Assembly: GCA_026708015.1 (NCBI GenBank)
Contig: JAPOVT010000056.1
Span: 228,134-292,133 of the forward strand
Length of the DNA: 64,000 nucleotides
Direction: 5' to 3'
Origin: a bacterium
GTDB lineage: Bacteria; Actinomycetota; Acidimicrobiia; Acidimicrobiales; Bin134
A model generated the notes under the pieces. It worked only from the letters and a program-made list of their open reading frames with translations, did no database searches and was not told the origin of the DNA. Positions 1-24,547 of the stretch are shown one piece after another. Made by a program: the position numbers and the translations under genes. The first letter of the stretch is position 1, and every line of letters begins with the position of its first letter.

Positions 1-89
1 GTGAAAAAGCTGGCCAATGGGTTGCGCCACAGCAGCACGAAGTCGAAGCGGGTCTGAGTCGCCAGCTGCTGGAGTCCCCGAGTGTTCAT
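1..89 (-). CDS. ABC-2 type transporter permease, N-terminus only (runs off window)
   Basis: Only the first 29 or so residues are inside the window. They begin MNTRGLQQLATQTRFDFVLL and continue with the WRNP..ASFF stretch that commonly opens ABC-2 permeases just before the first membrane helix. The ATG (87-89) overlaps the TGA of the upstream ATPase gene as ATGA, so the two are translationally coupled and should form one exporter. Substrate cannot be inferred. Confidence 0.75.
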   Translation of the reverse strand, partial: MNTRGLQQLATQTRFDFVLLWRNPLASFF

Positions 90-10656: not shown

Positions 10657-11514
10657 TCAGCCCACGGCCCGCTCGGCGGCGGCCACGGTGTTGGCCATAA
10701 GCATGGTACGGGTCATCGGTCCCACCCCACCGATTCGAGGCGAAAGCCAGCCCGCCACCTCGGTTACATCGTCGTCCACGTCCGAAACCAGCTTGCCGTC
10801 GGCAAAGCTCACCCCGGCGGCCACCACCGCTGCGCCGGGCTTGACCATGTCGGCCTTCACCATGCGGGGCGCCCCGGCCGCGGCGATGAGGATGTCGGCG
10901 GTCTTGGTATAACGAGCAATGTCGCCCGCCCCGGTATGAACCACGGTGACCGCTGCGTTGGCGTTGGGCCGCTTCAGCGACAACAAGTTGGCCAACGGCC
11001 GGCCGATGGTGAGGCCCCGCCCGATGATGACCACGTGCTGGCCGGCGATTGGGATCTCGTAGCGCTCCAGCATGAGCTGAATGCCCCGCGGCGTGCAGGC
11101 CAACGGGGCATCCACCCCCTGGACCAGCCGCCCCAGATTCACCGGGTGGAGGCCGTCAGCATCCTTTTCGGGCATTACCCGCAACAGGGCCGTCTCGTAG
11201 TCGAGGTGGTCGGGGAAGGGGTACTGCATGATGTAGGCGTCAACTGCCGGATCGGCGTTGAAGTCGTCCACCACGGCGTCGACCTCTTCCTGGGATGCAT
11301 CAGCAGGGAGGTGGACCTCCCGAGAACCCATTCCCAGCTCCTCGCTGTCGCGGTGCTTCATGGCCACATAGTTGGCCGACGGCCCGTCGTCGCCCACCAA
11401 CAGCGTCCCCAATCCCGGGGTCACGCCCTTCTCGGCCAGCGCGGCGATCCGCTCGCGCAGGCCTTCTTTGATTTCAGCTGACAGCATTTCGCCGTCGAGT
11501 TTGATAGCAGTCAT
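10657..11514 (-). CDS. folD: Methylenetetrahydrofolate dehydrogenase / methenyl-THF cyclohydrolase
   Basis: A 285-residue bifunctional FolD interconverting 5,10-methylene-, methenyl- and 10-formyl-THF. The catalytic lysine lies in NYVAMKHRDSEELG, the substrate loop reads MQYPFPDHLD, and DGLHPVNLGRL, the NADP site GRGLTIGRPLANLL and the C-terminal IGGVGPMTRTMLMANTV are all present. It lies just downstream of the formate dehydrogenase genes and in the same orientation as fhs, giving a complete formate to methylene-THF route. Start set at the ATG at 11514, just after a G-rich ribosome-binding site. Confidence 0.95.
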   Translation of the reverse strand: MTAIKLDGEMLSAEIKEGLRERIAALAEKGVTPGLGTLLVGDDGPSANYVAMKHRDSEELGMGSREVHLPADASQEEVDAVVDDFNADPAVDAYIMQYPFPDHLDYETALLRVMPEKDADGLHPVNLGRLVQGVDAPLACTPRGIQLMLERYEIPIAGQHVVIIGRGLTIGRPLANLLSLKRPNANAAVTVVHTGAGDIARYTKTADILIAAAGAPRMVKADMVKPGAAVVAAGVSFADGKLVSDVDDDVTEVAGWLSPRIGGVGPMTRTMLMANTVAAAERAVG

Positions 11515-11583
11515 CGCCCCCAACTTAGTTGTGATGATTGGTAATTGAAGGACGTTCGCAATGTGATTCGGAAGGGGGGAATC

Positions 11584-12423
11584 TCACACGTAGTTCCAGC
11601 CGAAGCGGCCTTTGATGCAGAGGTTGCCTCGGGTGACGTCGTGATCGTCGGGGGAAGTGCATTTGACGATCTGATTGTCCTGCACATGCAGTTCGAGGTT
11701 GCAGCCCACGCCGCAGTAGGAGCACACGGTTTGGGTCACGGTTTGGTCCTCGGGGCGCCAGTCATCGGCCTCACGCAGGTTGAACTCGGTCTTGAACTGG
11801 AGGGCGTTGGTGGGGCACACGGCCACGCAGTTTCCGCAGTACACGCAGGCTGAGTCGGGAAGGGTCACGTCGAACTCGGTGGAGATGCGGGCGCCGAAGC
11901 CCCGGCCGGCCACCGAGATGGCGTAGGTGTGCTGGGCGTCGTCGCCGCAGGCCTCCACGCAGCGGTAGCACAGCACGCACTTGTCGTAGTCGCGGATGTA
12001 GAGGTTGTCCTGCACCCGCACCGGCTCGTTCATGGTCTCGCCGCCGGGGACGTAGCGGTGAGGGTCGGCCCCGTAGTGCTCGGCCCACTGGCCCAGCTCG
12101 TCGGCCTGGGATACATCGACCCCGGTGGCCAGAAACTCGATCACCATCTTGCGGCTGTGGCGCACCCGTTCGCTGTCGGTATGCACCACCATGCCTTCCT
12201 CAGCCGGACGAGAGCAGGAGGGAACCAGGGCTCGGCTGCCGTCCAGCTCCACGACACACACCCGGCACACGTTTACCGGGGTGAGGGTGGGGCCGTAGCA
12301 GATGGTGGGAGTATCGATGCCCGCGGCGTCGCAGGCATCCAGGATGGTGGCTCCTTCGGGCACAGCCACCTCTTGGCCGTCCACCCGGATGGTGACTGCG
12401 GTCTCGGTGACAGCAGGGCTCAC
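11584..12423 (-). CDS. Formate dehydrogenase Fe-S subunit: detached N-terminal part of the alpha chain
   Basis: A 279-residue protein equal to the N-terminal third of a normal NAD-dependent FDH alpha chain. It has a 2Fe-2S ferredoxin domain (Cys42, 53, 56, 70), two 4Fe-4S clusters (Cys149/152/155/159 and 193/196/199/203) and then the molybdopterin-enzyme 4Fe-4S domain CSYCGVGC..CIKGRFG (Cys234/237/241/269), where it stops at GWNYV. In ordinary FDHs this runs straight into the RLTxPxxR catalytic domain. Here that domain is a separate gene (14164-16083) two genes upstream. The start overlaps the stop of fdhB (ATGA). It presumably docks with the catalytic chain to complete the electron path to NAD. 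Confidence 0.88.
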   Translation of the reverse strand: MSPAVTETAVTIRVDGQEVAVPEGATILDACDAAGIDTPTICYGPTLTPVNVCRVCVVELDGSRALVPSCSRPAEEGMVVHTDSERVRHSRKMVIEFLATGVDVSQADELGQWAEHYGADPHRYVPGGETMNEPVRVQDNLYIRDYDKCVLCYRCVEACGDDAQHTYAISVAGRGFGARISTEFDVTLPDSACVYCGNCVAVCPTNALQFKTEFNLREADDWRPEDQTVTQTVCSYCGVGCNLELHVQDNQIVKCTSPDDHDVTRGNLCIKGRFGWNYV

Positions 12424-14198
12424 GATCTATTTCCTATCAGGCCTAGATCGATCGCGGAGCGCACGGCGGAGGCCGCGGTGTGGCCCAGCCCGCAGATGGA
12501 AGCGTCCACCATGGCCAGGGCCATGTCGTCGATCAGCTCGGCTCGCTGGGGCGCCAACGCCCGCCCGGAGGCTTGCAGCTCTACCAGCACCTCGTGCTGG
12601 CGCTGGGTGCCGACCCGACAGGGGACGCACTGGCCGCACGACTCGTCCCGGAAGAATTCGGCAATGCGAACTACCACCGCCTCCATGTCCACGGTGCTGT
12701 CGAACACGGTGACCACGCCTGACCCCAAGGTGGCCCCTGCCTCCCGGGCATCCTCCAAGGTGAGAGGCATATCCAAAGCGTCAGGGCCGACGAACACCCC
12801 AGCCGCGCCTCCCAGCAACACCGCGGCCAGCGAACCCACCGCCCCTCCGGCCAACTCGAGCAGTTCCCCAAGCGTGGTCCCGAACGGCACCTCATAGAGT
12901 CCGGGTACTCCCACTCGGCCCGACAGGCAGAACAGCCGGGTGCCAGGGGAGCGCTCGGTGCCCACCGAGCGGTAGGCGTCGGGGCCGTCGACCACGATGT
13001 CGAGCACGTTGACAAGGGTCTCGGGGTTGTTGATGGCGGTGGGCTGGTTGAACAGACCATGTGTGGTGGGGAAGGGAGGCTTGTTGCGGGGCTCGCCCCG
13101 GAAGCCCTCGATGGAGTTGAACAGCGCGGTTTCCTCACCGCAGATGTAGGCCCCTGCCCCCCGGCGAAGCTCGATGTCGAATCGCTGACCACTGTCGACT
13201 ACGTCATCCCCCAACAAGCCCGCGGCCCGGGCTTGGGCAATGGCTTCCTCTAGTCGGGCGGTAGCTCGGGGATATTCGCCTCGGATGTAGATCCACCCGT
13301 GGGGAGACCCAGTAGCCAGCCCGGCAATGGTCATCGACTCGATGATCGCGAAAGGGTCGTGCTCGCAGATGATGCGGTCTTTGAAGGTGCCGGGCTCTGA
13401 TTCGTCGCAGTTGGCCACCACGTGCTTGTCCGGACCGGGCTCGTCGGCCACGGCCCGCCATTTGATGCCAGTGGGAAACGCGGCCCCGCCTCGCCCCGAC
13501 AGGCCGGAGTCGGAGATGGCCGAGATCACCGCATCAGGCCCTACTTCGATGGCAGAGGCCAATGCCTGATAGCCGCCGTGTTCCTGATAGGAATCCAAGG
13601 AGGTGGGATCCACCACACCCACTCGGCTGAGTACCCGCAGTCCTGGGTCGCCTGCTTGGGGCAAACGGAAGTCCTCGTCATCGTCAGCCGGCACCCGGTC
13701 GGGTCGCCCTACTCCCTGGACAAACAGCGCAGGGGCGCGTTCGCACTGACCGAGGCACGGGCTGTCGTGGACCTTGGCCCCGCTGGCCTCCAGCGACCCC
13801 CGCAGCTCTTCGTTGCCGGCCAGAGCACACGACGGGTCGACGCACACGTGGACCACGTCGTCACGGTGTCCGGGGTCGGTTGTGCGCAGCAGCTCATAGA
13901 ACGTGGCCACGCCATAAGCCTCGGCGGGCGGCACTCCCAGCCGTTTGGCCGCACCGTTCAATCCGCCAGGGCTGATCCAGCCGATTTCATGCTGAAGCGA
14001 GTGCAACACCGGCAGGAGCAGATGGCGCAGTCCCTGGCGCCGGCTGCGACCTCCGCGCACCACCCGTTCAGTCTCGGTGACGGTGGCCGCGTCTGCCTCG
14101 GGGACGATGGCGTCGATGGCGGCCAACTCGGCATCGGTGGGCTGGTCGTCGCCGAAGTGGAGGTCAGCCAACGGTGGCCCCCGCGGTCTCCGGGGCAT
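12420..14198 (-). CDS. fdhB: Formate dehydrogenase beta subunit, NuoE-NuoF fusion (NADH-binding)
   Basis: A ~590-residue diaphorase subunit. The N-terminal ~160 residues are NuoE-like with a 2Fe-2S site (CVDPSCALAG, SPCLGQCERAP). The NuoF part follows: GLSGRGGAAFPTGIKW for FMN/NADH, RGEYPRATARLEEAI, ICGEETALFNSIEGFRGEPR, an SLBB region, and the distal 4Fe-4S motif ESCGQCVPCRVGTQ. It passes electrons between the Mo-site subunits and NAD. The ATG at 14198 overlaps fdhA by 35 bp; a TTG at 14171 would give a shorter overlap and is a real alternative. Confidence 0.92.
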   Translation of the reverse strand: MPRRPRGPPLADLHFGDDQPTDAELAAIDAIVPEADAATVTETERVVRGGRSRRQGLRHLLLPVLHSLQHEIGWISPGGLNGAAKRLGVPPAEAYGVATFYELLRTTDPGHRDDVVHVCVDPSCALAGNEELRGSLEASGAKVHDSPCLGQCERAPALFVQGVGRPDRVPADDDEDFRLPQAGDPGLRVLSRVGVVDPTSLDSYQEHGGYQALASAIEVGPDAVISAISDSGLSGRGGAAFPTGIKWRAVADEPGPDKHVVANCDESEPGTFKDRIICEHDPFAIIESMTIAGLATGSPHGWIYIRGEYPRATARLEEAIAQARAAGLLGDDVVDSGQRFDIELRRGAGAYICGEETALFNSIEGFRGEPRNKPPFPTTHGLFNQPTAINNPETLVNVLDIVVDGPDAYRSVGTERSPGTRLFCLSGRVGVPGLYEVPFGTTLGELLELAGGAVGSLAAVLLGGAAGVFVGPDALDMPLTLEDAREAGATLGSGVVTVFDSTVDMEAVVVRIAEFFRDESCGQCVPCRVGTQRQHEVLVELQASGRALAPQRAELIDDMALAMVDASICGLGHTAASAVRSAIDLGLIGNRS

Positions 14199-16083
14199 CG
14201 ACCAGCTCTACCCGCACCGCCGCCGCCTTGAACTCGGCGGTGCCGGATTTCGGGTCCCAGTCAGGGTTGGTGAGCACGTTTACGTCGATCAACTCAGGGT
14301 GGTGCAATGTGGTGAAGGCCAACCCTGTCGGCAGGCTCGACACCAGCCGGACATTCATCTCCACTGATCCCCGAGGGGAGGACACTCGCACCCGGTCGCC
14401 GTCGGCGATGCCCAATTCAGCGGCATCGGTCGGATTCAAGTCCAACCCGGCAAACCGCAGCGGCGAGTCGTAGTTCCCGCTTTGCACCCCAGTGTTGTAA
14501 GAGTCCAGCGCCCGTCCGGTGGTGAGCCGCAGGGGAAATTCGTCGCTCAACTCCTCGGTGGGACCCTCGTGCTCCAGCACTGAGAACGGTGCCGGGTCGC
14601 GGCCCTCCAGATCATCGGCCCAGAGCCAGCCGTGGAGGAAGGCACTGCCGGGGTGATCCTCGTTGGGGCAGGGCCATTGCAGGCCGCCAACGGCTTCCAG
14701 TCGCTCCCAACTCATGCCCTCGTGCATGTCCGACAGAGAGCGCAGCTCCTTCCAGGCGGCCTCGGGGTCGCGAGGGCCGAGTTCGGCACCCATGGCTTCG
14801 GCCATATCGCACAGGATGTCGATGTCGTGGCGGGCCAGACCGGGGGGCGAAACCGCGGGCCGCACCCGCTGAACCCGACGCTCGCTGGAAGTGACGGTGC
14901 CTTCACTCTCTGCCCAAGCCACAGAGGCGGGCAGCACCACATCGGCCATCTCGGCGGTGCGGGTCATCAGAATGTCTTGCACCACCAAGATATCCAGGCC
15001 TTCCATTTGGGCCCGGGCGTGAGCCACATCGGCCTCGGAATCAGCAGGGTTCTCGCCGATCACGTACAGCGCTCGCAGGTCGCCCCGTTCCATAGCCTCG
15101 AACATCAGCGTGAGGTGCCAACCGGGCACCGGGTTGAGCTCCCGGCCGTAGGCGGCCTCGAACCGGGCCCGATGGTCGGGGTCGTCCACGCCGGCGAAAC
15201 CGGGGAACTTGTTGGGGATAGCGCCCATGTCACCGCCGCCCTGCACATTGTTCTGACCCCGCAACGGCACCAGCCCTGAGCCCCACCGACCCACATGGCC
15301 GGTAAGCAGAGCCAGATTGCACAGCGACAGCACGTTGTCCACCGCGTTGTGGTGCTCGGTGATGCCCAGGGTCCACAAGATTTGAGCGGTATCAGCGGTG
15401 GCGTAGGCGTGGGCCATCTCCACCACCACCTCGGCGGGGATGCCGCAGATGGCGGCTACCGCGTCGGGGGTGAACGGCTCCACCGAGGCTGCGTAGGCCT
15501 CAAATCCTTGGGTGGAGTGGTCGATGAAGTCCTGGTTGGCCAAACCGGCGTGGATGATTTCCCGGCCGATGCCATTGGCCAAGGCGATGTCGGTACCCAC
15601 GTCGATGCCCACCCACACGTCGGAGAATTGGGCCGAGGAGGTGTAGCGGGGGTCGACACAGTACATGCGGGCACCGTTGTCGATGCCCTTGAGCAGGTGA
15701 TGGAAGAAGATGGGATGGGCCTCGCGGGCGTTGGACCCCCACAGGAGGATCAGGTCGGCCTCCTCGATCTCCTGATAGGAGCTCGTGCCCCCTCCCGCTC
15801 CGAACACTGTCGCCAGACCGACGACTGAAGGAGCGTGTCAAGTTCGGTTGCAGGAGTCGATGTTGTTGGAGCCCACCACCGTGCGGATGAACTTCTGGGC
15901 GATGTAGTTCATCTCGTTGGTGGCCTTGGAGCAGCTGAACATCCCGAACGCCTGGGGTCCATGCTGTTCGAGCACCTGGTTGAACCCAGTCGCGGCCCGT
16001 GAAAGAGCCTCGTCCCACGTCGCTTCCCGCAAGCTCCCGTTGTCCCGCACCATCGGCACGGTCAAACGTTCCCGCCTCGCCAT
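14164..16083 (-). CDS. fdhA: Formate dehydrogenase catalytic subunit, selenocysteine-containing (in-frame UGA)
   Basis: A 639-residue molybdo/tungsto-bis-MGD catalytic chain if the TGA at 15838-15840 is read as selenocysteine (residue 82). Around it the frame reads SCNRT-U-HAPSVVGLATVF, matching the CxRTUH active site of Sec-type FDHs, and the same frame continues without interruption to 14164. The SECIS hairpin follows at once. Later blocks are GVTEHHN-like ITEHHNAVDN, RGQNNVQGGGDMG, GENPADSEAD and the MoCo-binding end TGRALDSYNTG..HHPELIDVNVLTNPDWDP. It begins at RRERLTVPMVR, lacking the N-terminal Fe-S part, which is encoded at 11584-12423. ATG at 16083 is preceded by an AAAGGGG ribosome-binding site. 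Automatic gene calls would split it at the UGA. Confidence 0.93.
15796..15840 (-). promoter_or_regulatory. Bacterial SECIS element after the fdhA UGA
   Basis: Reading the minus strand from the TGA (15840-15838), CGCTCC (15835-15830) pairs with GGAGCG (15801-15796). Inside it GTCGTC (15825-15820) pairs with GGCGAC (15814-15809), closing the five-base loop GGTCT. E. coli fdhF has the same apical GGUCU in its SelB-binding hairpin, at a comparable distance from the UGA. This makes UGA decoding as selenocysteine the natural reading. Confidence 0.85.
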
Positions 16084-16257: not shown

Positions 16258-18591
16258 CTACTCAACGCGAAGAACTGACTGGATTCCCCAGCATTCGACC
16301 GTTTGGTCAGTCCGCATGCCGCAAGTGTGAAACGAGCCAGCAGCAAGTGACGTGAAGCGACCTGCGGGTGGGCTTGATTGTCCGTAGGTGTTGTCCCCCC
16401 AGCACTCGGCGGTCCCATCCGCCAGCAGACCACAACCATGGCTGGATCCGGCTGAGATCACCATATAAGTGTCGTCATTGGGAGGTGCTAGGCCATCGTC
16501 TAATGGCGACTCGCTGTCTGATCCCCAGCACTTTTTGCTTCCGTCGAATTTCAACGCGCAAATCTGAGCCTCGCTGCCGACAATCCGCATAAACGAACTC
16601 TCAGACTGGTTGGGCATGTCTTCGAATCCTCGGCCCCAGCACGCCACTGACCAATCAAGTCGCTGAGCGCAGGAGAATTCGCCCTTGGCGACTACTTCTG
16701 CGTATCGGCCGGTAGGGGAAGTGGTCTGACCATGACTGTTCCCGCCCCAACAATCCACCGTCTGGTCAGGCCTCAGGCCGCAATAGTGCTGGGCCCCTGC
16801 CGAAAGCGTGTCGAATTCTCCTGATGGGAGATCGGGTAGATCGTGATTCCAGCAGACAACGCGTTTGTCTTCTCGTAAGGCGCAAATCCCATCAACCACC
16901 CCACGGGAGACATCAATATCAGGGAATCGAACGTAAATGCCCGAGGGTGCCTCTCCATATATCGGCATCGGTTCAAGACACTCGCGATCGGAACAGCCGT
17001 GTTCTCCCCAACAAACCACGTCACCATCCGCTTGCAATGCGCAGGCATAGTGCGATCCCATGAATAAGTCTACGTACTGACCTGAAGGGGGGTAGAGAAT
17101 CTCGGCTGGTGGGCCTGCAAGGTCTCCGAAACAGGAGATTCTGCCGCTTGAAGACAGGTGGCAGGTCGCCCTCGAACCGCTGGCAGATTTGGCCCGTATT
17201 CCTCCGTCAGGAGTATCAGTGGGAGCGAAGAACTGGGGACTCCAACAGGCAATCGTCGTGTCATTTCGCAAACCACACGACATGGTGTCGTTTGTCGCCA
17301 CTTCAACAAAGGGACCCGTTGGAGTTGTCTCGGGGGTGCTCCCAGAGCCCCAGCAGACTGCACTTGCATCTGCACCAACTGCACAGGTGCTTGATCCTGC
17401 TGATGCGATGTCGATGAAATGGCCAGTGGGGGCCTCTGTCTGTCCTGTGTATGCGCTGCTCCAGCAGTCGATTGCACCGTCTGACCGCAAGCCGCAGAAA
17501 TGCGCGCCACCCACGGATACTGCGTCGTATTGGCCAGAGATGTCCGCAACCCCTCTGGGCGCATCGTTATCGAAGCAGACAATGCTCTGATCGCTTCGCA
17601 CGGCACAGATGAAGTCTTCGCCGCTAGAGATGTCCATATACTCCCCGTCGGGAACGGTGGCCCTCCCCGAATAGTTGCTTCCCCAGCAGACGATGCTCTT
17701 GTTGGTCAGTAGTCCGCAATGGCGCCAGAAACCGAGAGAAGCAAATTCGAACTTCTCGTTGATGGGCACTTCCCATTTGCGGGAAGGTGTCCACCCCCAG
17801 CACCACAAGTTGGAGCTCGCATCTAAGCCGCACGTTTGTTCCACTCCTACGTGGATTGACTCGAACTGCGCATTCCTCAGAGCAGGCCGTCGAGACATTT
17901 CCAACTCCAAATATCCGTCATCGATCCAACATGTGGCTGACTTGTCTGGTCGTACCCCGCATGCGCGCCACCAACGCACCGAGATACTCAGAAACTCACC
18001 TTCAGGCTCGCGTATCCGTTCCTCGGGGTCCTCGTAGTCGAAGGCTCCTCCCCAGCATTTCACCGTACTGTTGGCGAGCAGTCCGCAGGTATGTCCATAG
18101 CCCGCGAAGATTGACTGGAATAGCTCGTTGGGAATATCGAGTTGGCCATGGAAATTGTCTCCCCAGCAATAGGCGGTTCCGTTGGCTCGCAGGCCACAAA
18201 CATGGTCTCGCCCTGCGGATACGGCTTGAAATGGGGAGTCCTCTGAAGTGTCCCCTTGGCTGCCGTTGACGGGATTTGGGCTCGGTGCGGGAGATGGGGC
18301 CGGAGTGGTTGTTGGAGCGGGATCTGGACTCGAGGATTGAGCAGGCGCGGGAGTAGCTGTTGGGGGGATTGTCGGGGTCGAAGTAGGGGAGGAAATGGGT
18401 GTAGGGAGCGTTGTCGGGGGTGCGTCGGGCTGAATGGTGGATTCTGATGTGGGCGAGGCCGTGGCAATAGTGTCGGGCTGGCGGACGGCGTTCTGGGAGC
18501 TTTCAGCGCCGCAGCCCGCCAACCCGACGGAGAGAATCACCAATGTGCCGGCCAAGACCAAGAGTGTTCCGGCGCGCTCGGTCATACTCAT
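16258..18591 (-). CDS. Lipoprotein with 17 RCC1-like repeats
   Basis: A ~777-residue predicted surface lipoprotein. A signal peptide (TLLVLAGTLVILSVGLAGC) ends in a lipobox LAGC, followed by a ~75-residue Pro/Thr/Ser spacer and then 17 repeats of about 40 residues with the pattern H-x-CGL-R-x-DG-x-x-x-CWG, e.g. HVCGLRANGTAYCWG and HTCGMRTDQTVECWG. The layout resembles RCC1/BLIP-II beta-propeller blades, and the two cysteines per blade probably form a disulfide, as expected outside the cell. Base composition is visibly poorer in GC than the neighbours. The start could be any of three close ATGs (18606, 18591, 18585). It sits inside the one-carbon block, between 61-bp repeats, which suggests insertion. 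Function unknown. Confidence 0.85.
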   Translation of the reverse strand: MSMTERAGTLLVLAGTLVILSVGLAGCGAESSQNAVRQPDTIATASPTSESTIQPDAPPTTLPTPISSPTSTPTIPPTATPAPAQSSSPDPAPTTTPAPSPAPSPNPVNGSQGDTSEDSPFQAVSAGRDHVCGLRANGTAYCWGDNFHGQLDIPNELFQSIFAGYGHTCGLLANSTVKCWGGAFDYEDPEERIREPEGEFLSISVRWWRACGVRPDKSATCWIDDGYLELEMSRRPALRNAQFESIHVGVEQTCGLDASSNLWCWGWTPSRKWEVPINEKFEFASLGFWRHCGLLTNKSIVCWGSNYSGRATVPDGEYMDISSGEDFICAVRSDQSIVCFDNDAPRGVADISGQYDAVSVGGAHFCGLRSDGAIDCWSSAYTGQTEAPTGHFIDIASAGSSTCAVGADASAVCWGSGSTPETTPTGPFVEVATNDTMSCGLRNDTTIACWSPQFFAPTDTPDGGIRAKSASGSRATCHLSSSGRISCFGDLAGPPAEILYPPSGQYVDLFMGSHYACALQADGDVVCWGEHGCSDRECLEPMPIYGEAPSGIYVRFPDIDVSRGVVDGICALREDKRVVCWNHDLPDLPSGEFDTLSAGAQHYCGLRPDQTVDCWGGNSHGQTTSPTGRYAEVVAKGEFSCAQRLDWSVACWGRGFEDMPNQSESSFMRIVGSEAQICALKFDGSKKCWGSDSESPLDDGLAPPNDDTYMVISAGSSHGCGLLADGTAECWGDNTYGQSSPPAGRFTSLAAGSFHTCGMRTDQTVECWGIQSVLRVE

Positions 18592-18642
18592 ATACCTAAG
18601 ACGCATGGCTGGCGGAATTGGTTCCGCCTGATAGGCATACTC

Positions 18643-18703
18643 GTCAGCTCAGGCCGACGATCTCTCCGTTCTCGTCGAGGTCGATGCCCATGGCGGCGGG
18701 TTG
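18643..18703. repeat. 61-bp perfect direct repeat, right copy (3' end of fhs)
   Basis: This is the native copy: the final codons of fhs plus its stop. The identical 61 bp at 16195-16255 lie on the far side of the RCC1-like gene. The identity ends sharply on both sides (bases 18642 and 18704 differ from 16194 and 16256). Confidence 0.95.
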
Positions 18704-20341
18704 GCGGCCGAGGCCGGGCATGGTGCGCATGTCGCCGCAGATGGGGTAGACGAAGCCGGCGCCCACCGAGGCCCGCACTTCTCGTACCGGCAATGTCCAG
18801 CCGGTGGGGGCGCCCTTGAGGGAGGGGTCAGACGAGATGGACAGGTGGGTCTTGGCGATGCACACCGGAAGGTGGCCGAAACCGGCATTCTCGTAGGTGT
18901 CGAGCTGGCGGTTGGCCGTGGCCGAGTACTCCACGTCGTCGGCGCCGTACACCGTGGTGGCCACAGCGGCGATCTTGTCCTTGAGCGACAGATCGTCCTC
19001 GTACAGAACCTTGAAGGAGCTGGGCTCCTCGCAGGCCTCGGCCACCGCCTCGGCCAACTGGGCCGCTCCCGCGCCGCCGTCGGAGAAGTGGGTGGTGATC
19101 GCACAGCGAGCGCCGTACTCGTCGGCGATCTCACCGATGGCAGCCAGGTCGGCGTCGTGGTCGCCGGGGAAGGCGTTGATGGCCACCACCGGGGTCACCC
19201 CGTGGGCTTTCATATTGGAGAGCTGCTTGCGAAGATTGTCGCCTCCGGCGTGCACCTCGTCGGGGTTCTCAGCCAGCAGCGCCTCGGGCAGGGGGCGCCC
19301 GGCGACGATGCGGTGGTTGCCGGAGTGGGCCTTGAGCCCCCGCACAGTGGCCACCATCACCGCAGCGTCGGGCGCCAAGCCCGAATAGCGGCACTTGATG
19401 TTGAAGAAGCGCTCAGCCCCCATGTCGGCGCCGAATCCGGCCTCGGTTACCAAGAAGTCGCCGGTGTGGATGGCGATTCGGTCGGCCACGATGGAGGAGT
19501 TGCCGGTGGCGATGTTGCCGAACGGCCCGGTGTGAACCAGGGCGGGACCGCCCTCCAGGGTTTGCATGAGGTTGGGCTTGAGGGCGTCCTTCAAAAGCAC
19601 GGCCATGGCCCCGGCGGCCTTCAGGTCCTCCGCGGTCACCGGATCGCCAGCTTTGGTGTAGCCAACCACGGTGCGTCCCAAACGGGCCCGCAAGTCGGAT
19701 AGAGATGTAGCCAGCGCCAGGGTGGCCATCACCTCCGATGCCGCGGTGATGTCGAATCCGCTCTCCCGAGGGATACCGTCGAGCCGTCCACCCAGACCGA
19801 GCACAATGTTTCGCAGCGCCCGGTCGTTGATATCCACCACCCGGCGCCAGGTGATGTTGTGCAGATCCAGGCCTGACTCGTTGCCGTGGTAGATGTGGGC
19901 ATCGAGCATGGCCGAGCACATGTTGTGGGCCGCGGTCACCGCGTGCATGTCACCGGTTAGGTGGAGGTTGAACAGTTCCATGGGCACCACCTGGCTGTAG
20001 CCGCCGCCGGCGGCGCCCCCCTTGATACCGAAAGTCGGCCCCAGTGATGGCTGGCGAATGGCGATGGTCGCCTTCTTGTTGATGTGGCCGAACCCTTGGC
20101 CCAGCCCCACGGTGGTGGTGGTCTTGCCTTCGCCCAATGGCGTTGGGGTGATGGCCGTCACCACCACATAGCGGGCTCGGGGCCGATCAGACAGAGCCTC
20201 GATGGCATCCAAGCTGATCTTGGCTGCCCCTGCCCCGTAGGGCTCCAGCATCTCGACCGGGATGCCGGCTTCTTCGGCGATTTCGGATAGTGGTCGGAGG
20301 TTCGCCCCGCGGGCGATCTCGAGGTCAGAAGGAAAAGACAT
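18644..20341 (-). CDS. fhs: Formate-tetrahydrofolate ligase
   Basis: A 565-residue ATP-dependent ligase making 10-formyl-THF from formate. The P-loop reads TPLGEGKTTTTVGLGQ near residue 60. Further landmarks are RQPSLGPTFGIKGGAAGGGY, NLHLTGDMHAVTAAHN, LTKAG-like YTKAGDPVTAEDL, and GADMGAERFFNIKCRYSGL. Together with the FDH genes and folD it completes a CO2/formate to methylene-THF branch. I chose the ATG at 20341, since the upstream ATG at 20356 would place the GAGGCGGG ribosome-binding site inside the gene. Its last 61 bp are duplicated at 16195. Confidence 0.96.
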   Translation of the reverse strand: MSFPSDLEIARGANLRPLSEIAEEAGIPVEMLEPYGAGAAKISLDAIEALSDRPRARYVVVTAITPTPLGEGKTTTTVGLGQGFGHINKKATIAIRQPSLGPTFGIKGGAAGGGYSQVVPMELFNLHLTGDMHAVTAAHNMCSAMLDAHIYHGNESGLDLHNITWRRVVDINDRALRNIVLGLGGRLDGIPRESGFDITAASEVMATLALATSLSDLRARLGRTVVGYTKAGDPVTAEDLKAAGAMAVLLKDALKPNLMQTLEGGPALVHTGPFGNIATGNSSIVADRIAIHTGDFLVTEAGFGADMGAERFFNIKCRYSGLAPDAAVMVATVRGLKAHSGNHRIVAGRPLPEALLAENPDEVHAGGDNLRKQLSNMKAHGVTPVVAINAFPGDHDADLAAIGEIADEYGARCAITTHFSDGGAGAAQLAEAVAEACEEPSSFKVLYEDDLSLKDKIAAVATTVYGADDVEYSATANRQLDTYENAGFGHLPVCIAKTHLSISSDPSLKGAPTGWTLPVREVRASVGAGFVYPICGDMRTMPGLGRQPAAMGIDLDENGEIVGLS

Positions 20342-20477
20342 GGACCCGCCTCTCATGCTCGATGCTTGATGTCAACCCCGTCAGCGTACACGGACAATCA
20401 GCCGGTGATCGGGCGGCTGAGTCGGCCAATCCTTAGACTCGGCGATGGCAGCGACGGCGCCATGACGGAGGCTCGCC

Positions 20478-21815
20478 ATGACTGACTTCTTCGACACCGT
20501 TCCCGAGCCGGTGAGCTTCGCCGGCCGCCGAGCGGGTCTTGGCCAGCTGGCCTACCGGGTGTACGACCCCGACCGCCAGGTCATGGGCCGGCGCATGGAA
20601 GACCACCTGCGGATTGCGGTGTGCTATTGGCACAGCTTCAATTGGCCGGGTAGCGACATCTTTGGCCACGGCACGTTCGACCGCCCCTGGCTAGAGCCGG
20701 GACAGGACCCGATGGCCGCCGCCCGGGCCAAGCAGGATGCAGCCTTTGAGTTCTTCGAGAAGCTGGGCACGCCGTTCTTCTGCTTCCACGATGTAGACAT
20801 GGCCCCGGAAGGCGCAGATCTAAGCGAGAGCCGAGTCAATCTCGACACCATGGTGGAGCGGGCTGCGGAGAAGATGGAGGCCACCGGTGTGCGGCTGCTG
20901 TGGGGCACGGCCAACCTGTTCTCCCATCCCCGCTACGCCGCCGGGGCGGCCACCAATCCCAATCCCGATGTGTTCACCCACGCCGCGGCCCAGGTTCGCC
21001 ACATGCTGGAGGCCACCCACCGTCTCGACGGGGCCAACTACGTGCTGTGGGGAGGACGGGAGGGCTACGAGACGCTGCTCAACACCCGCCTGCGCCAAGA
21101 GGCCGACCAGCTCGCCCGCTTTCTGACCCTGGTGGCTGAGCACAAGCGCAAGATCGGCTTCACCGGCACCCTGCTCATCGAGCCCAAGCCCCAGGAGCCC
21201 ACCAAGCACCAGTACGACTACGACTGCACCTCGGTTCACGGCTTCTTGGATCGCTACGACCTCGTCGACGAGTTCAAGGTGAACATCGAGGTGAACCACG
21301 CCACCTTGTCGGGCCACTCCTTCCATCACGAGGTGGCCTATGCGATGGACAACGGAATCTTCGGCAGCGTGGACGCCAACCGGGGTGACCCCCAGAACGG
21401 TTGGGACACCGACCAGTTCCCCAACTCGGTGGACGAGCTCTCGCTGGCTCTCTATGAGATCTTGCGAGGCGGGGGATTCACCACCGGTGGATTCAACTTC
21501 GACACCAAGCTCCGCCGCCAGAGCATGGCCAGAGATGACCTGTTCTGGGGCCACATCGGCGGCATCGACACACTGGCCCGCTCTCTGCTGGTGGCGGAGG
21601 CCATGCTGGCCGACGGGGCCATCGAGCAGGCCAGGGCCGCCCGCTATGCCGGTTGGGACTCGGGACTGGGCGCCGAGATCATGAAGGGTGATGTGGACCT
21701 TGCCGTGCTAGCCGATCAGGCGGTGGCTGACGGGCTCGACCCCCAGCCGGTGTCGGGTCGCCAGGAACGATTGGAGAACGAGGTCAACCGCATCATCTGG
21801 TCCACGCCGAACTGA
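20478..21815 (+). CDS. xylA: Xylose isomerase (class II, E. coli-like)
   Basis: A 445-residue enzyme converting D-xylose to D-xylulose. The catalytic His/Asp lie in [12 protein letters not shown]. Metal ligands are in [35 protein letters not shown] and [19 protein letters not shown]. The ~50-residue N-terminal extension ([20 protein letters not shown]) marks the long class II type found in E. coli and Bacillus, whereas most actinobacteria carry the short class I enzyme. It is followed by xylB 67 bp downstream. No ABC or repressor gene for xylose is in the window. Confidence 0.96.
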
Positions 21816-21882: not shown

Positions 21883-23361
21883 ATGGTTGGCCGTGCATTG
21901 GTGGCCGGGGTGGACTCTTCCACCCAATCCACAAAGGTCGAACTGCGAGAACTCGACTCCGGCCTTCTGGTTGACCGGACTAGTGCCCCGCACACCCACT
22001 CGCGCTGGGAGCCGCCGGTGAGCGAGCAAGACCCGGCAATTTGGTGGGAGGCACTGTCGGCCTGCTTTGCCCAATTGACTGATGCCGACCGGGCCAATGT
22101 GGTGGCAGTGAGCGTGGCCGGCCAGCAGCACGGCCTGGTGCTGGTAGACGAAGACGGCGAAGCTCTGCGCCCGGCCAAGCTGTGGAACGACACCACTTCC
22201 GCGCCCCAGGCCCGTGACCTGGTAGCCCGCCATGGTCGCGAGCAGTGGGCCCGGCGCTGCGGTTCGGTGCCGTTGGCATCGTTCACCATTGCCAAGCTGG
22301 CTTGGGTGCTCAAGCATGAGCCCGAACTGGCTGACCGGGTCGCTCAAATCATGCTGCCCCACGACTGGCTCACTTGGCGGCTGACCGGCGCTCATGTCAC
22401 CGACCGAGGTGACGCCTCGGGCACCGGTTGGTTCGATCCCGCCGCCAATGAGATGGCCCCAGATCTGCTGGGTTTGGCCGTGGGCGATCCAAACGGCTGG
22501 CTGCCTCGGTTGCCCCGGGTGCTCGAGCCTGATCAGGCGGCTGGGCCAATCACACCGCAAGCGGCGGCCACCCTGGGAGTGAGTGCCTCAGTGCTCGTCG
22601 GCCCCGGCACTGGCGACAACATGGGCGCGGCTCTCGGACTCGGGTTGAAGCCCGGTGACACAGTGATCTCGCTGGGTACCTCTGGCACGGCCTATTCCGT
22701 CTCCACCACGCCAACCAGCGACCCGACAGGCGCGGTGGCCGGGTTCGCCGACGCCGCTGGTGGCTATCTGCCATTGGTGTGCACGCTCAACGCCACACGG
22801 GTGAGCGACACGGTGGCCCGCTGGCTGGGGGTCGAACCTTCGGAGCTAGCCGCCCTGGCCCTGGCCGCGACGGAGAATTCGAGCGCACCGGTACTTGTGC
22901 CCTATTTCGACGGGGAGCGCACTCCCAACCTGCCCGATGCCACCGGTTTATTGACAGCTCTACGAAACGACACCACCCGCGAGGAACTAGCCCTGGCCGC
23001 CCACGACGGTGTGCTCTGCGGGCTGCTTGACGGTCTCGATGCCTTGCGGAGGGCCGGGGTTGACGCCAGCGGTCGGCTACACCTGATTGGCGGCGGAGCC
23101 CGCTCGGCCGCTTACCGGGTGCGGGCTGCGGCGTTGCACGGCGCGGCTATCACTGTGCCCGACGACGACGAGATAGTTGCCCTGGGGGCCGCGGTGCAGG
23201 CTGCGGCGGTGGCGGCGGGCAGCCATCCAGTCGAGGTGGCTGCCCAATGGCCGCTCGGTCAGGGAACGCTTGTCGATCCCCCGCCTGGGATCGATGGGGG
23301 AGAAATCCGTACCCGCTACGCCGAACAGCAACGGAGAGCCTTTCCCTCCAGCAGCGGGTAG
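21883..23361 (+). CDS. xylB: Xylulokinase
   Basis: A 492-residue FGGY-family kinase phosphorylating D-xylulose. The ATP-binding phosphate-1 motif VAGVDSSTQSTKVELRE is at the N-terminus, AVSVAGQQHGLVLVDEDG near residue 70 carries the xylulose-contact GQQHG, and GTGDNMGAALGLGLKPGD, SLGTSGTAYSV and the C-terminal LHLIGGGARSAAYR, where the conserved adenosine motif lies, are all present. It forms an operon with xylA for entry of xylose into the pentose phosphate pathway. Confidence 0.94.
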   Translation: MVGRALVAGVDSSTQSTKVELRELDSGLLVDRTSAPHTHSRWEPPVSEQDPAIWWEALSACFAQLTDADRANVVAVSVAGQQHGLVLVDEDGEALRPAKLWNDTTSAPQARDLVARHGREQWARRCGSVPLASFTIAKLAWVLKHEPELADRVAQIMLPHDWLTWRLTGAHVTDRGDASGTGWFDPAANEMAPDLLGLAVGDPNGWLPRLPRVLEPDQAAGPITPQAAATLGVSASVLVGPGTGDNMGAALGLGLKPGDTVISLGTSGTAYSVSTTPTSDPTGAVAGFADAAGGYLPLVCTLNATRVSDTVARWLGVEPSELAALALAATENSSAPVLVPYFDGERTPNLPDATGLLTALRNDTTREELALAAHDGVLCGLLDGLDALRRAGVDASGRLHLIGGGARSAAYRVRAAALHGAAITVPDDDEIVALGAAVQAAAVAAGSHPVEVAAQWPLGQGTLVDPPPGIDGGEIRTRYAEQQRRAFPSSSG

Positions 23362-23389
23362 CGACCTTGCCCTGTGGGAGAGTGTGAGC

Positions 23390-24547
23390 ATGTCGAGTGA
23401 CCAGACGATGCGCGACCTCATGGCCAACCTGCCGGTACCGGAGTTTGAGTCCACACCATGGGCTTCTCCACCCCCCTTGTCGGAGGCCACTGTGGCTATC
23501 GTAACCAGTGCGGGGCTGCACCGGGCCGACCAGGACCGTTTTGAAGGCCGGGGTGACACCAGCTACCGCATGCTCAACCGAGAAGACCGCGAGCTGATAT
23601 TGGGCCACTGGAGTTCCAACTTCGACCGGGCTGCGTATGTGTCCGACCACAACGTGGTGTACCCCATCGACCGGCTGGAGGAGTTGGCCACCGATGGCAC
23701 CATCGGGGCCGTGGCCCCTCGGCATGTGGCGTTCGCAGGCAATCAGCCCGACACTGTTTCGGAGGTGCGCCTCGATACCGGCCCCGCCGCCGCGGCCCAA
23801 TTGCGGGCCGACGGAGTAGACGTGGCCATCTTGACGCCGGTTTGACCGCTGTGCACGCGCACCGTGTGTGTGCTGGCCCACGTGCTGGAAGACGCTGGGA
23901 TTGCCACGGTGGTGCTGGCGTCGATGAGGCCAGTAGCTGAGCGGATGAGTGTTCCCAGGGTGCTGTACTGCGAGTTCCCCCTGGGTCGCCCGTTGGGCAT
24001 GCCCGATAACGCCCAATTCCAACATGGTGTTCTTGCCGCAGCATTCGAACTGCTCAACGCCCCCTCCGGCCCAGTGCTGGTGGACTATCCGGAAGTGGTG
24101 GAGGCAGTAGAGACACCGCTGGCCTGTGCGCTGCCGCCCCGTTTCGACCCCGATATCGCCGCGTCGGTGGACGAGGCCCAGGGACTGCGAGCCGCCTATG
24201 ACCGGGCGGTTGCCCGCCGGGGGGCCACCGAAGTAGGCCGTTCCATCGACCCTGACGGTGTCCCCGGCGCCCTAGCTGATTTGGAGCGACTGATCGCCGG
24301 AGAACACTGGAAAGAGGTCTATGGCCCTCGGTTGGACACCATCGCCATCGCCCACGACATCCGGGCCTATTACCAAGAGGCCGCTCTCGAGCTAGCCGGT
24401 GGCCCGCCTCCAGGGGCACGGCAGGCGGAGGCCTGGTTCTACGAGGAGACCGAGGCGGGGAAGACGCTGGCCGCAGCACGGGATGCCCTCACCGAGCAAG
24501 AGGCCCCCAGCGGCATCACCTTCTACATGCAGCCAGTGGGACGCTGA
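23390..24547 (+). CDS. Glycine/sarcosine/D-proline reductase B-like selenoprotein (in-frame UGA, Sec152)
   Basis: A 385-residue protein when the TGA at 23843-23845 is read through. Upstream of it the frame gives PVPEFESTPWAS..LSEATVAIVTSAGLH and IGAVAPRHVAFAG. The frame then reads DVAILTPV-U-PLCTRTVCVLAHVLE followed by AGIATVVLAS, and continues uninterrupted to 24547. This is the layout of the GrdB/PrdB-like family, whose members carry Sec or Cys at exactly this place (TPVxPxCxxx). ATG 23390 follows a GGGAGAG ribosome-binding site, 28 bp after xylB. There are no grd or prd partner genes here, so this is one of the stand-alone homologues of unknown substrate. A gene caller would report two fragments. 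Confidence 0.88.
23853..23873 (+). promoter_or_regulatory. Candidate SECIS hairpin after the GrdB-like UGA
   Basis: Seven bases after the TGA, GCACGCGC (23853-23860) pairs with GTGTGTGC (23866-23873), all eight positions pairing if G-U is allowed, around a loop ACCGT. Position and size suit a bacterial SECIS. The loop differs from the GGTCT of the fdhA element, so SelB recognition is less certain. Confidence 0.55.

What the first reader, a model, noticed from the sequence alone, without database searches (positions are those of the whole stretch)
23390..24547. Second selenoprotein: GrdB/PrdB-like reductase after xylAB
An in-frame TGA at codon 152 sits in TPV-U-PLCTRT, the redox motif of the glycine/D-proline reductase B family, and the frame is open for 234 codons afterwards. 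A hairpin starts 7 bases past it. There are no grd/prd partner genes, and the gene hangs on a xylose operon. Two independent Sec sites within ~8 kb support genuine Sec decoding.
Basis: partly seen in the sequence, partly recalled or inferred. Interest (0 to 1): 0.7.

Follow-up and report, generated by a model that had tools for sequence, protein, structure and literature searches.

The report
Partnerless PrdB-like selenoprotein with extra domain
A bacterium that looks like a marine sponge symbiont reads an internal UGA "stop" as selenocysteine to make an enzyme-like protein related to proline/glycine reductases, but without the partner subunits those enzymes need and with an extra domain of unknown kind, so it is a real and widespread selenoprotein whose job is unknown.

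Summary
Window 23390-24547 (+) is one 385-residue gene read through an in-frame UGA at codon 152. Evidence for selenocysteine (Sec): the genome has tRNA-Sec (anticodon TCA), selA, selB and selD. Of 84 distinct long-form relatives, 83 have TGA at this codon and one has TGC (Cys). dN/dS is low on both sides of the TGA. A six-pair hairpin lies +12 to +28 after the TGA, complete in 76 of 79 long Sec genes (synonymous-codon null: mean 0.3, maximum 4), with compensatory changes in five of six pairs; Cys homologues do not keep it. It belongs to the GrdB/PrdB superfamily but is neither: PrdB equivalog 142 bits against a cut-off of 300, and no GrdE/PrdA or GrdA match anywhere in the genome. It defines a long form, mostly in Acidimicrobiia: a Rossmann-like UxxC domain plus a C-terminal helical domain (236-385) without Pfam, PDB-sequence or Foldseek match, carrying an invariant Cys246. 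The xylAB neighbour is shared only by close relatives. Likely role (inferred): a standalone Sec-dependent thiol reductase, substrate unknown. Marine "PrdB" selenoproteins have been known since 2005; the fused form and its partnerless state are the new part.

The parts
23390..24547 (+). Selenoprotein gene, 385 aa with Sec152 (TGA at 23843-23845), stop TGA 24545-24547
23376..23382 (+). GGGAGAG, ribosome-binding-like site 7 bases before the ATG (by eye, not tested)
   Evidence: sequence reading
23468..24055 (+). PrdB-like domain, residues 27-222 (TIGR04483 match); Rossmann-like in the predicted model
23843..23845 (+). In-frame TGA read as selenocysteine, residue 152
   Evidence: 83 of 84 distinct long forms TGA, 1 TGC
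23852..23854 (+). Cys155, the second residue of the UxxC motif, invariant in the 20-row long-form alignment
23853..23873 (+). Putative bacterial SECIS hairpin; conserved stem 23857-23862 / 23868-23873, loop 23863-23867
24095..24544 (+). C-terminal all-helical domain (residues 236-385), no match in Pfam, PDB sequences or Foldseek at a useful E-value
24125..24127 (+). Cys246, invariant in 60 of 60 aligned long forms; candidate resolving thiol (inferred)
20478..21815 (+). xylA, xylose isomerase (neighbour, not shown to be part of the system)
21883..23361 (+). xylB, xylulokinase, 28 bases upstream (neighbour, not shown to be part of the system)

Best explanation
This is a genuine Sec-containing member of the GrdB/PrdB superfamily, of a distinct 'long form'. 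Sec152 is inserted at UGA by the cell's SelA/SelB/SelD/tRNA-Sec system, directed by a hairpin 12-28 bases downstream (strongly supported). The protein has a Rossmann-like UxxC domain fused to an uncharacterised helical domain. It works without the pyruvoyl subunit (GrdE/PrdA) and without GrdA. Inferred mechanism: the Sec152 selenolate attacks an electrophilic small molecule or a disulfide, Cys155 (and perhaps the invariant Cys246 of the helical domain) resolves the adduct as a selenenylsulfide, and a thioredoxin/mycothiol-type reductant regenerates it. In other words, a standalone Sec-dependent thiol reductase or reductive-cleavage enzyme, probably tied to catabolism. The substrate is unknown.
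For: Sec machinery in the same genome: tRNA-Sec 67.5 bits, anticodon TCA; selB 272 bits; selA 399 bits; selD 353 bits. TGA in 83 and TGC in 1 of 84 distinct long forms, with no other codon. dN/dS about 0.04-0.17 before and 0.06-0.12 after the TGA against five relatives. Hairpin: 6/6 pairs in 76 of 79 long Sec genes against a synonymous-codon null mean of 0.3 (max 4); 16 of 26 short Sec forms (null 1.3); 0 of 7 Cys forms. Covariation score 0.747 against a shuffled mean of 0.210 (0/500 shuffles), 97% paired against 15-57% when slid; RNAalifold finds the same stem unaided. Superfamily: PF07355 7.5e-11, over its cut-off, TIGR04483 2.2e-41. selA present in every Sec long-form genome tested (15 of 15), and in G025 with the Cys long form. 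Partner absence. Invariant Cys155 and Cys246.
Against: No expression, selenium incorporation or enzyme data. The only basis for reductase chemistry is homology and the UxxC motif. Neighbouring genes differ between lineages (xylAB; PhyH-like/SDR/MFS; acyl-CoA dehydrogenase with a xanthine-dehydrogenase-like gene), so no substrate can be read from them. Foldseek found no PDB match at E <= 0.001 for the whole model or the C-terminal domain.
Confidence: 0.6

Rival explanations
1. The protein is a Sec-dependent electron carrier or disulfide oxidoreductase (thioredoxin-like role) serving other enzymes, rather than an enzyme with its own small-molecule substrate.
For: UxxC motif; no conserved operon partner across lineages.
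Against: The fold is Rossmann-like, not thioredoxin-like, in the model, and the large conserved helical domain with invariant Glu262, Trp349, Thr354 and Gly357 suggests more than electron carriage.
Confidence: 0.2
2. It still works as in D-proline or glycine reductase, with a pyruvoyl partner encoded elsewhere and too diverged to detect.
For: Homology to PrdB over residues 27-222; plasmid-borne prdB sits beside prdA in Terrisporobacter.
Against: PF09338 recognises a real PrdA (2.8e-22) but has no match in the own genome or in 14 of 15 other long-form genomes; GrdA is absent from 13 of 14.
Confidence: 0.1
3. The UGA is a stop or sequencing error and the downstream half is a separate or dead reading frame.
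For: A GTG-started 227-aa ORF exists downstream (23864-24547).
Against: 83 distinct sequences with TGA at the same codon, a TGC homologue, purifying selection on both halves, hairpin covariation and the full Sec machinery.
Confidence: 0.02
4. It is a part of xylose metabolism, acting on a xylose-derived compound.
For: 28-base gap after xylB; seven loci, the window included, have xylA and xylB at the same place.
Against: A related sponge-clade genome (L033) keeps the gene without xylAB in front, and none of the 48 more distant long-form loci grouped with xylA or xylB. A short PrdB-like gene next to an FGGY-kinase-like reading frame (L048) is a single case.
Confidence: 0.05

Closest known systems
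PrdB, D-proline reductase 26-kDa selenoprotein subunit (TIGR04483)
   Same: Homologous over residues 27-222 (2.2e-41); Sec at the same place, LTAG-U-GTCHRS in Terrisporobacter; UxxC motif.
   Different: 33-34% identity; below the equivalog cut-off (142 against 300 bits); no prdA-family gene in the genome; a 150-residue extra C-terminal domain; the tree places true PrdB among the short forms, though on a long branch.
GrdB/GrdF/GrdH, selenoprotein B of glycine, sarcosine and betaine reductase (PF07355, TIGR01917/01918)
   Same: PF07355 above its gathering score (42.3 against 22 bits); UxxC.
   Different: Matches only the C-terminal part of GrdB and lacks its ~200-residue N-terminal half; no GrdE or GrdA; scores below all GrdB-type cut-offs in NCBIfam.
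Marine metagenomic 'PrdB' selenoproteins (Sargasso Sea 42 genes, PMC1088965; Global Ocean Sampling 235 Sec and 110 Cys, PMC2398784)
   Same: UxxC, pfam07355, abundant Sec forms in marine bacteria; probably overlaps with this group.
   Different: The passages read give no domain fusion for PrdB: the fusions named in PMC2398784 involve Prx, Prx-like, UGSC and SelD proteins. The papers treat them as proline reductase; partner absence was not discussed in the passages read.
Standalone 'glycine/sarcosine/betaine reductase selenoprotein B family' proteins in Roseomonas and Haematobacter
   Same: Partnerless PrdB-like domain without grd/prd neighbours.
   Different: Cys instead of Sec, about 300 aa, 32-33% identity, outside the long-form clade.

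Membership tests
Bacterial selenoprotein | In-frame UGA with conserved frame on both sides | tested here: met
Bacterial selenoprotein | Sec machinery (selA, selB, selD, tRNA-Sec) in the same genome | tested here: met
Bacterial selenoprotein | SECIS hairpin just downstream of the UGA | tested here: met
   (structure and covariation; SelB binding not testable)
Bacterial selenoprotein | Cys homologues at the Sec position | tested here: met
   (L046 long form; L067, L085-L087, L089, L090 short forms)
Bacterial selenoprotein | Selenium shown in the protein | not testable with these tools
   needs 75Se labelling or mass spectrometry
GrdB/PrdB superfamily (PF07355) | Pfam GRDB above gathering score | tested here: met
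   42.3 bits against 22
PrdB (D-proline reductase) | NCBIfam equivalog cut-off | tested here: not met
   141.9 bits against 300
PrdB (D-proline reductase) | Pyruvoyl partner PrdA in the genome | tested here: not met
GrdB (glycine/sarcosine/betaine reductase) | Full-length GrdB and partners GrdE and GrdA | tested here: not met
GrdB/PrdB enzymes | Reductive cleavage activity with a dithiol | not testable with these tools
   needs purified protein
Known fold family for the C-terminal domain | Match to a solved fold or a named domain | tested here: inconclusive
   no useful match, model pLDDT 90; absence of a match does not show a new fold

The most novel reading that the evidence does not exclude
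A standalone selenoenzyme family, common in Acidimicrobiia, in which a GrdB/PrdB-type Sec domain became independent of the pyruvoyl subunit by gaining a new helical domain (with a resolving Cys246 and other invariant residues), and which performs a Sec-dependent reductive cleavage not yet described.
Probability: 0.3. Interest if true: 0.65.

Novelty: new variant of a known kind. Interest (0 to 1): 0.48.

Why it matters
Automatic gene calling that treats TGA as stop would cut this gene in two. If confirmed, it shows that GrdB/PrdB-type selenoproteins have a life outside Stickland fermentation. It also gives a clean family, with a near-absolute preference for Sec (83 to 1), a strongly covarying SECIS and a Cys natural variant, for asking why Sec is kept and what standalone PrdB-like proteins do in marine bacteria, where they are among the most abundant selenoproteins (PMC1088965, PMC2398784).

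Tried and rejected
PDB by sequence and by fold for the whole model and for the C-terminal domain alone: nothing above noise; the N-terminal domain shows only a general Rossmann-like resemblance (best Z 7.8). Operon partner search by clustering neighbours of 56 long-form loci: no universal neighbour. Mononucleotide shuffles of the hairpin energy gave no signal for most sequences (z near 0) because the coding context is GC-rich; the synonymous-codon null and the covariation counts are the right tests. The TGA at 11584 (-), found by my own scan, was rejected as a Sec site: it ends a NuoG/HoxU-like protein and folD follows in the same frame by chance. Row L159 in the tree is a broken or frameshifted copy and its 'short' label is an artefact. 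Rfam found nothing in the window at gathering scores. Literature searches for orphan PrdB-like or Acidimicrobiia selenoproteins found nothing direct.

Full report
Observation. The gene at 23390-24547 (+) reads MSSDQ...LTPV-U-PLCTRT...PVGR, with TGA at codon 152 (23843-23845) and 233 further sense codons. An independent codon-usage scan of the window flags only two TGA-joined frames, this one and a false one at 11584 (-).

Sec decoding. The genome has one clear tRNA-Sec (67.5 bits, anticodon TCA), selA, selB and a selD that itself contains a TGA. The nearest relatives are Acidimicrobiia metagenome genomes, one named Candidatus Poriferisocius aerobius; all 17 loci that cover the position keep the TGA and the whole downstream half. 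A profile of the C-terminal part alone finds 69 of 298 genomes of the order, and in nearly all the open frame starts right after the same codon (231-244 codons). Codon tally after removing duplicates: 83 TGA, 1 TGC among long forms. The TGC form (L046, genome G025) reads LTPACPMCTRT, a natural Sec/Cys exchange. dN/dS from the printed estimates is about 0.04-0.17 before and 0.06-0.12 after the TGA against five relatives. selA is over the cut-off in all 15 Sec long-form genomes tested and in G025, and missing in 6 of the 12 same-order or same-genus genomes without the gene.

SECIS. Six pairs join bases +12..17 and +23..28 after the TGA. All six are kept in 76 of 79 long Sec sequences, against a mean of 0.3 and a maximum of 4 when synonymous codons are redrawn; short Sec forms 16 of 26 against 1.3; Cys forms 0 of 7. 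The third base of the Arg157 codon is T when base +25 is A and C when base +25 is G (38 and 40 of 79 sequences), linking a silent site to an amino-acid-changing one. On 28 sequences that I picked for diversity (odd short forms L054, L062, L164 and true PrdB left out), 97% of cells pair and the covariation score is 0.747, against 0.210 shuffled and at most 0.146 slid; RNAalifold predicts the same stem. My choice of rows favours the structure somewhat; the full set shows the same.

What it is. PF07355 and TIGR04483 place it in the GrdB/PrdB superfamily. It fails the PrdB and GrdB cut-offs of NCBIfam. No PF09338 (which does detect a real PrdA) and no GRDA match exists in the genome; among the other long-form genomes tested only G651 has them. 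A tree of the shared domain puts all long forms on one side of a fully supported branch, with short orphans, Cys proteins of Roseomonas/Haematobacter and true PrdB on the other, apart from the broken row L159; long branches make exact placements unsure. The long form has a confident model (pLDDT 85.6): a Rossmann-like domain with Sec at the start of a helix, and a helical domain (pLDDT 90.4 when predicted alone) without a family or fold match. Cys246, Glu262, Trp349, Thr354 and Gly357 are invariant in 60 rows. In the hits the frame length fits fusion to the Sec domain; no free-standing copy of the helical domain was seen.

Context. xylA and xylB precede the gene in the window and in six near relatives, but not in L033, where it follows fhs directly, nor in more distant genomes. 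Other lineages have a PhyH-like/SDR/MFS set or an acyl-CoA dehydrogenase and a xanthine-dehydrogenase-like gene beside it (named by eye from sequence). The gene moves among catabolic surroundings; no partner is fixed.

Mechanism. Shown by sequence evidence: Sec codon, SECIS, machinery, superfamily, lack of known partners, conserved thiols. Inferred: nucleophilic Sec152, resolving Cys155 and/or Cys246, reductive chemistry, catabolic role.

Known work. PrdB selenoproteins in the sea were reported in 2005 (42 genes) and 2008 (235 Sec, 110 Cys) (PMC1088965, PMC2398784); reviews list PrdB as TIGR04483 with UxxC (PMC9312934) and describe it as the D-proline reductase subunit (PMC13188914). Fusions named in PMC2398784 do not include PrdB. 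So: a new variant of a known kind.

Noticed in passing
window 15838-15840 (-), gene about 14164-15981: Formate dehydrogenase alpha subunit with a Sec TGA in SCNRT-U-HAPS. Its N-terminal part (Fe-S domains and GRFGWNYV) is a separate gene at 11584-12423 (-), on the other side of a NuoE/NuoF-like fusion: a split, re-ordered FdhA.
   Followed up: partly
window 10657-11523 and 11584-12423 (-): folD follows the split FdhA N-terminal gene in the same frame after a TGA, which mimics a read-through site but is an ordinary stop. With fhs at 18644-20356 this makes a formate/THF one-carbon cluster.
   Followed up: partly
L019 (own genome, C61:35848-36792): selD itself matches with one internal TGA, so it is probably a third selenoprotein of this genome.
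   Followed up: no
window 16258-18606 (-): A 782-aa RCC1-repeat protein between fhs and formate dehydrogenase; eukaryote-like repeat proteins are often reported in sponge symbionts (recalled, not tested).
   Followed up: no
L048 (G184): A short PrdB-like Sec gene is followed directly by an FGGY-kinase-like reading frame, echoing the xylulokinase neighbour in the window.
   Followed up: no
L165, L206 (genome G651): An Acidimicrobiales-order genome with a true GrdE and a TGA-containing GrdA about 3 kb apart, besides a long-form PrdB-like gene.
   Followed up: no
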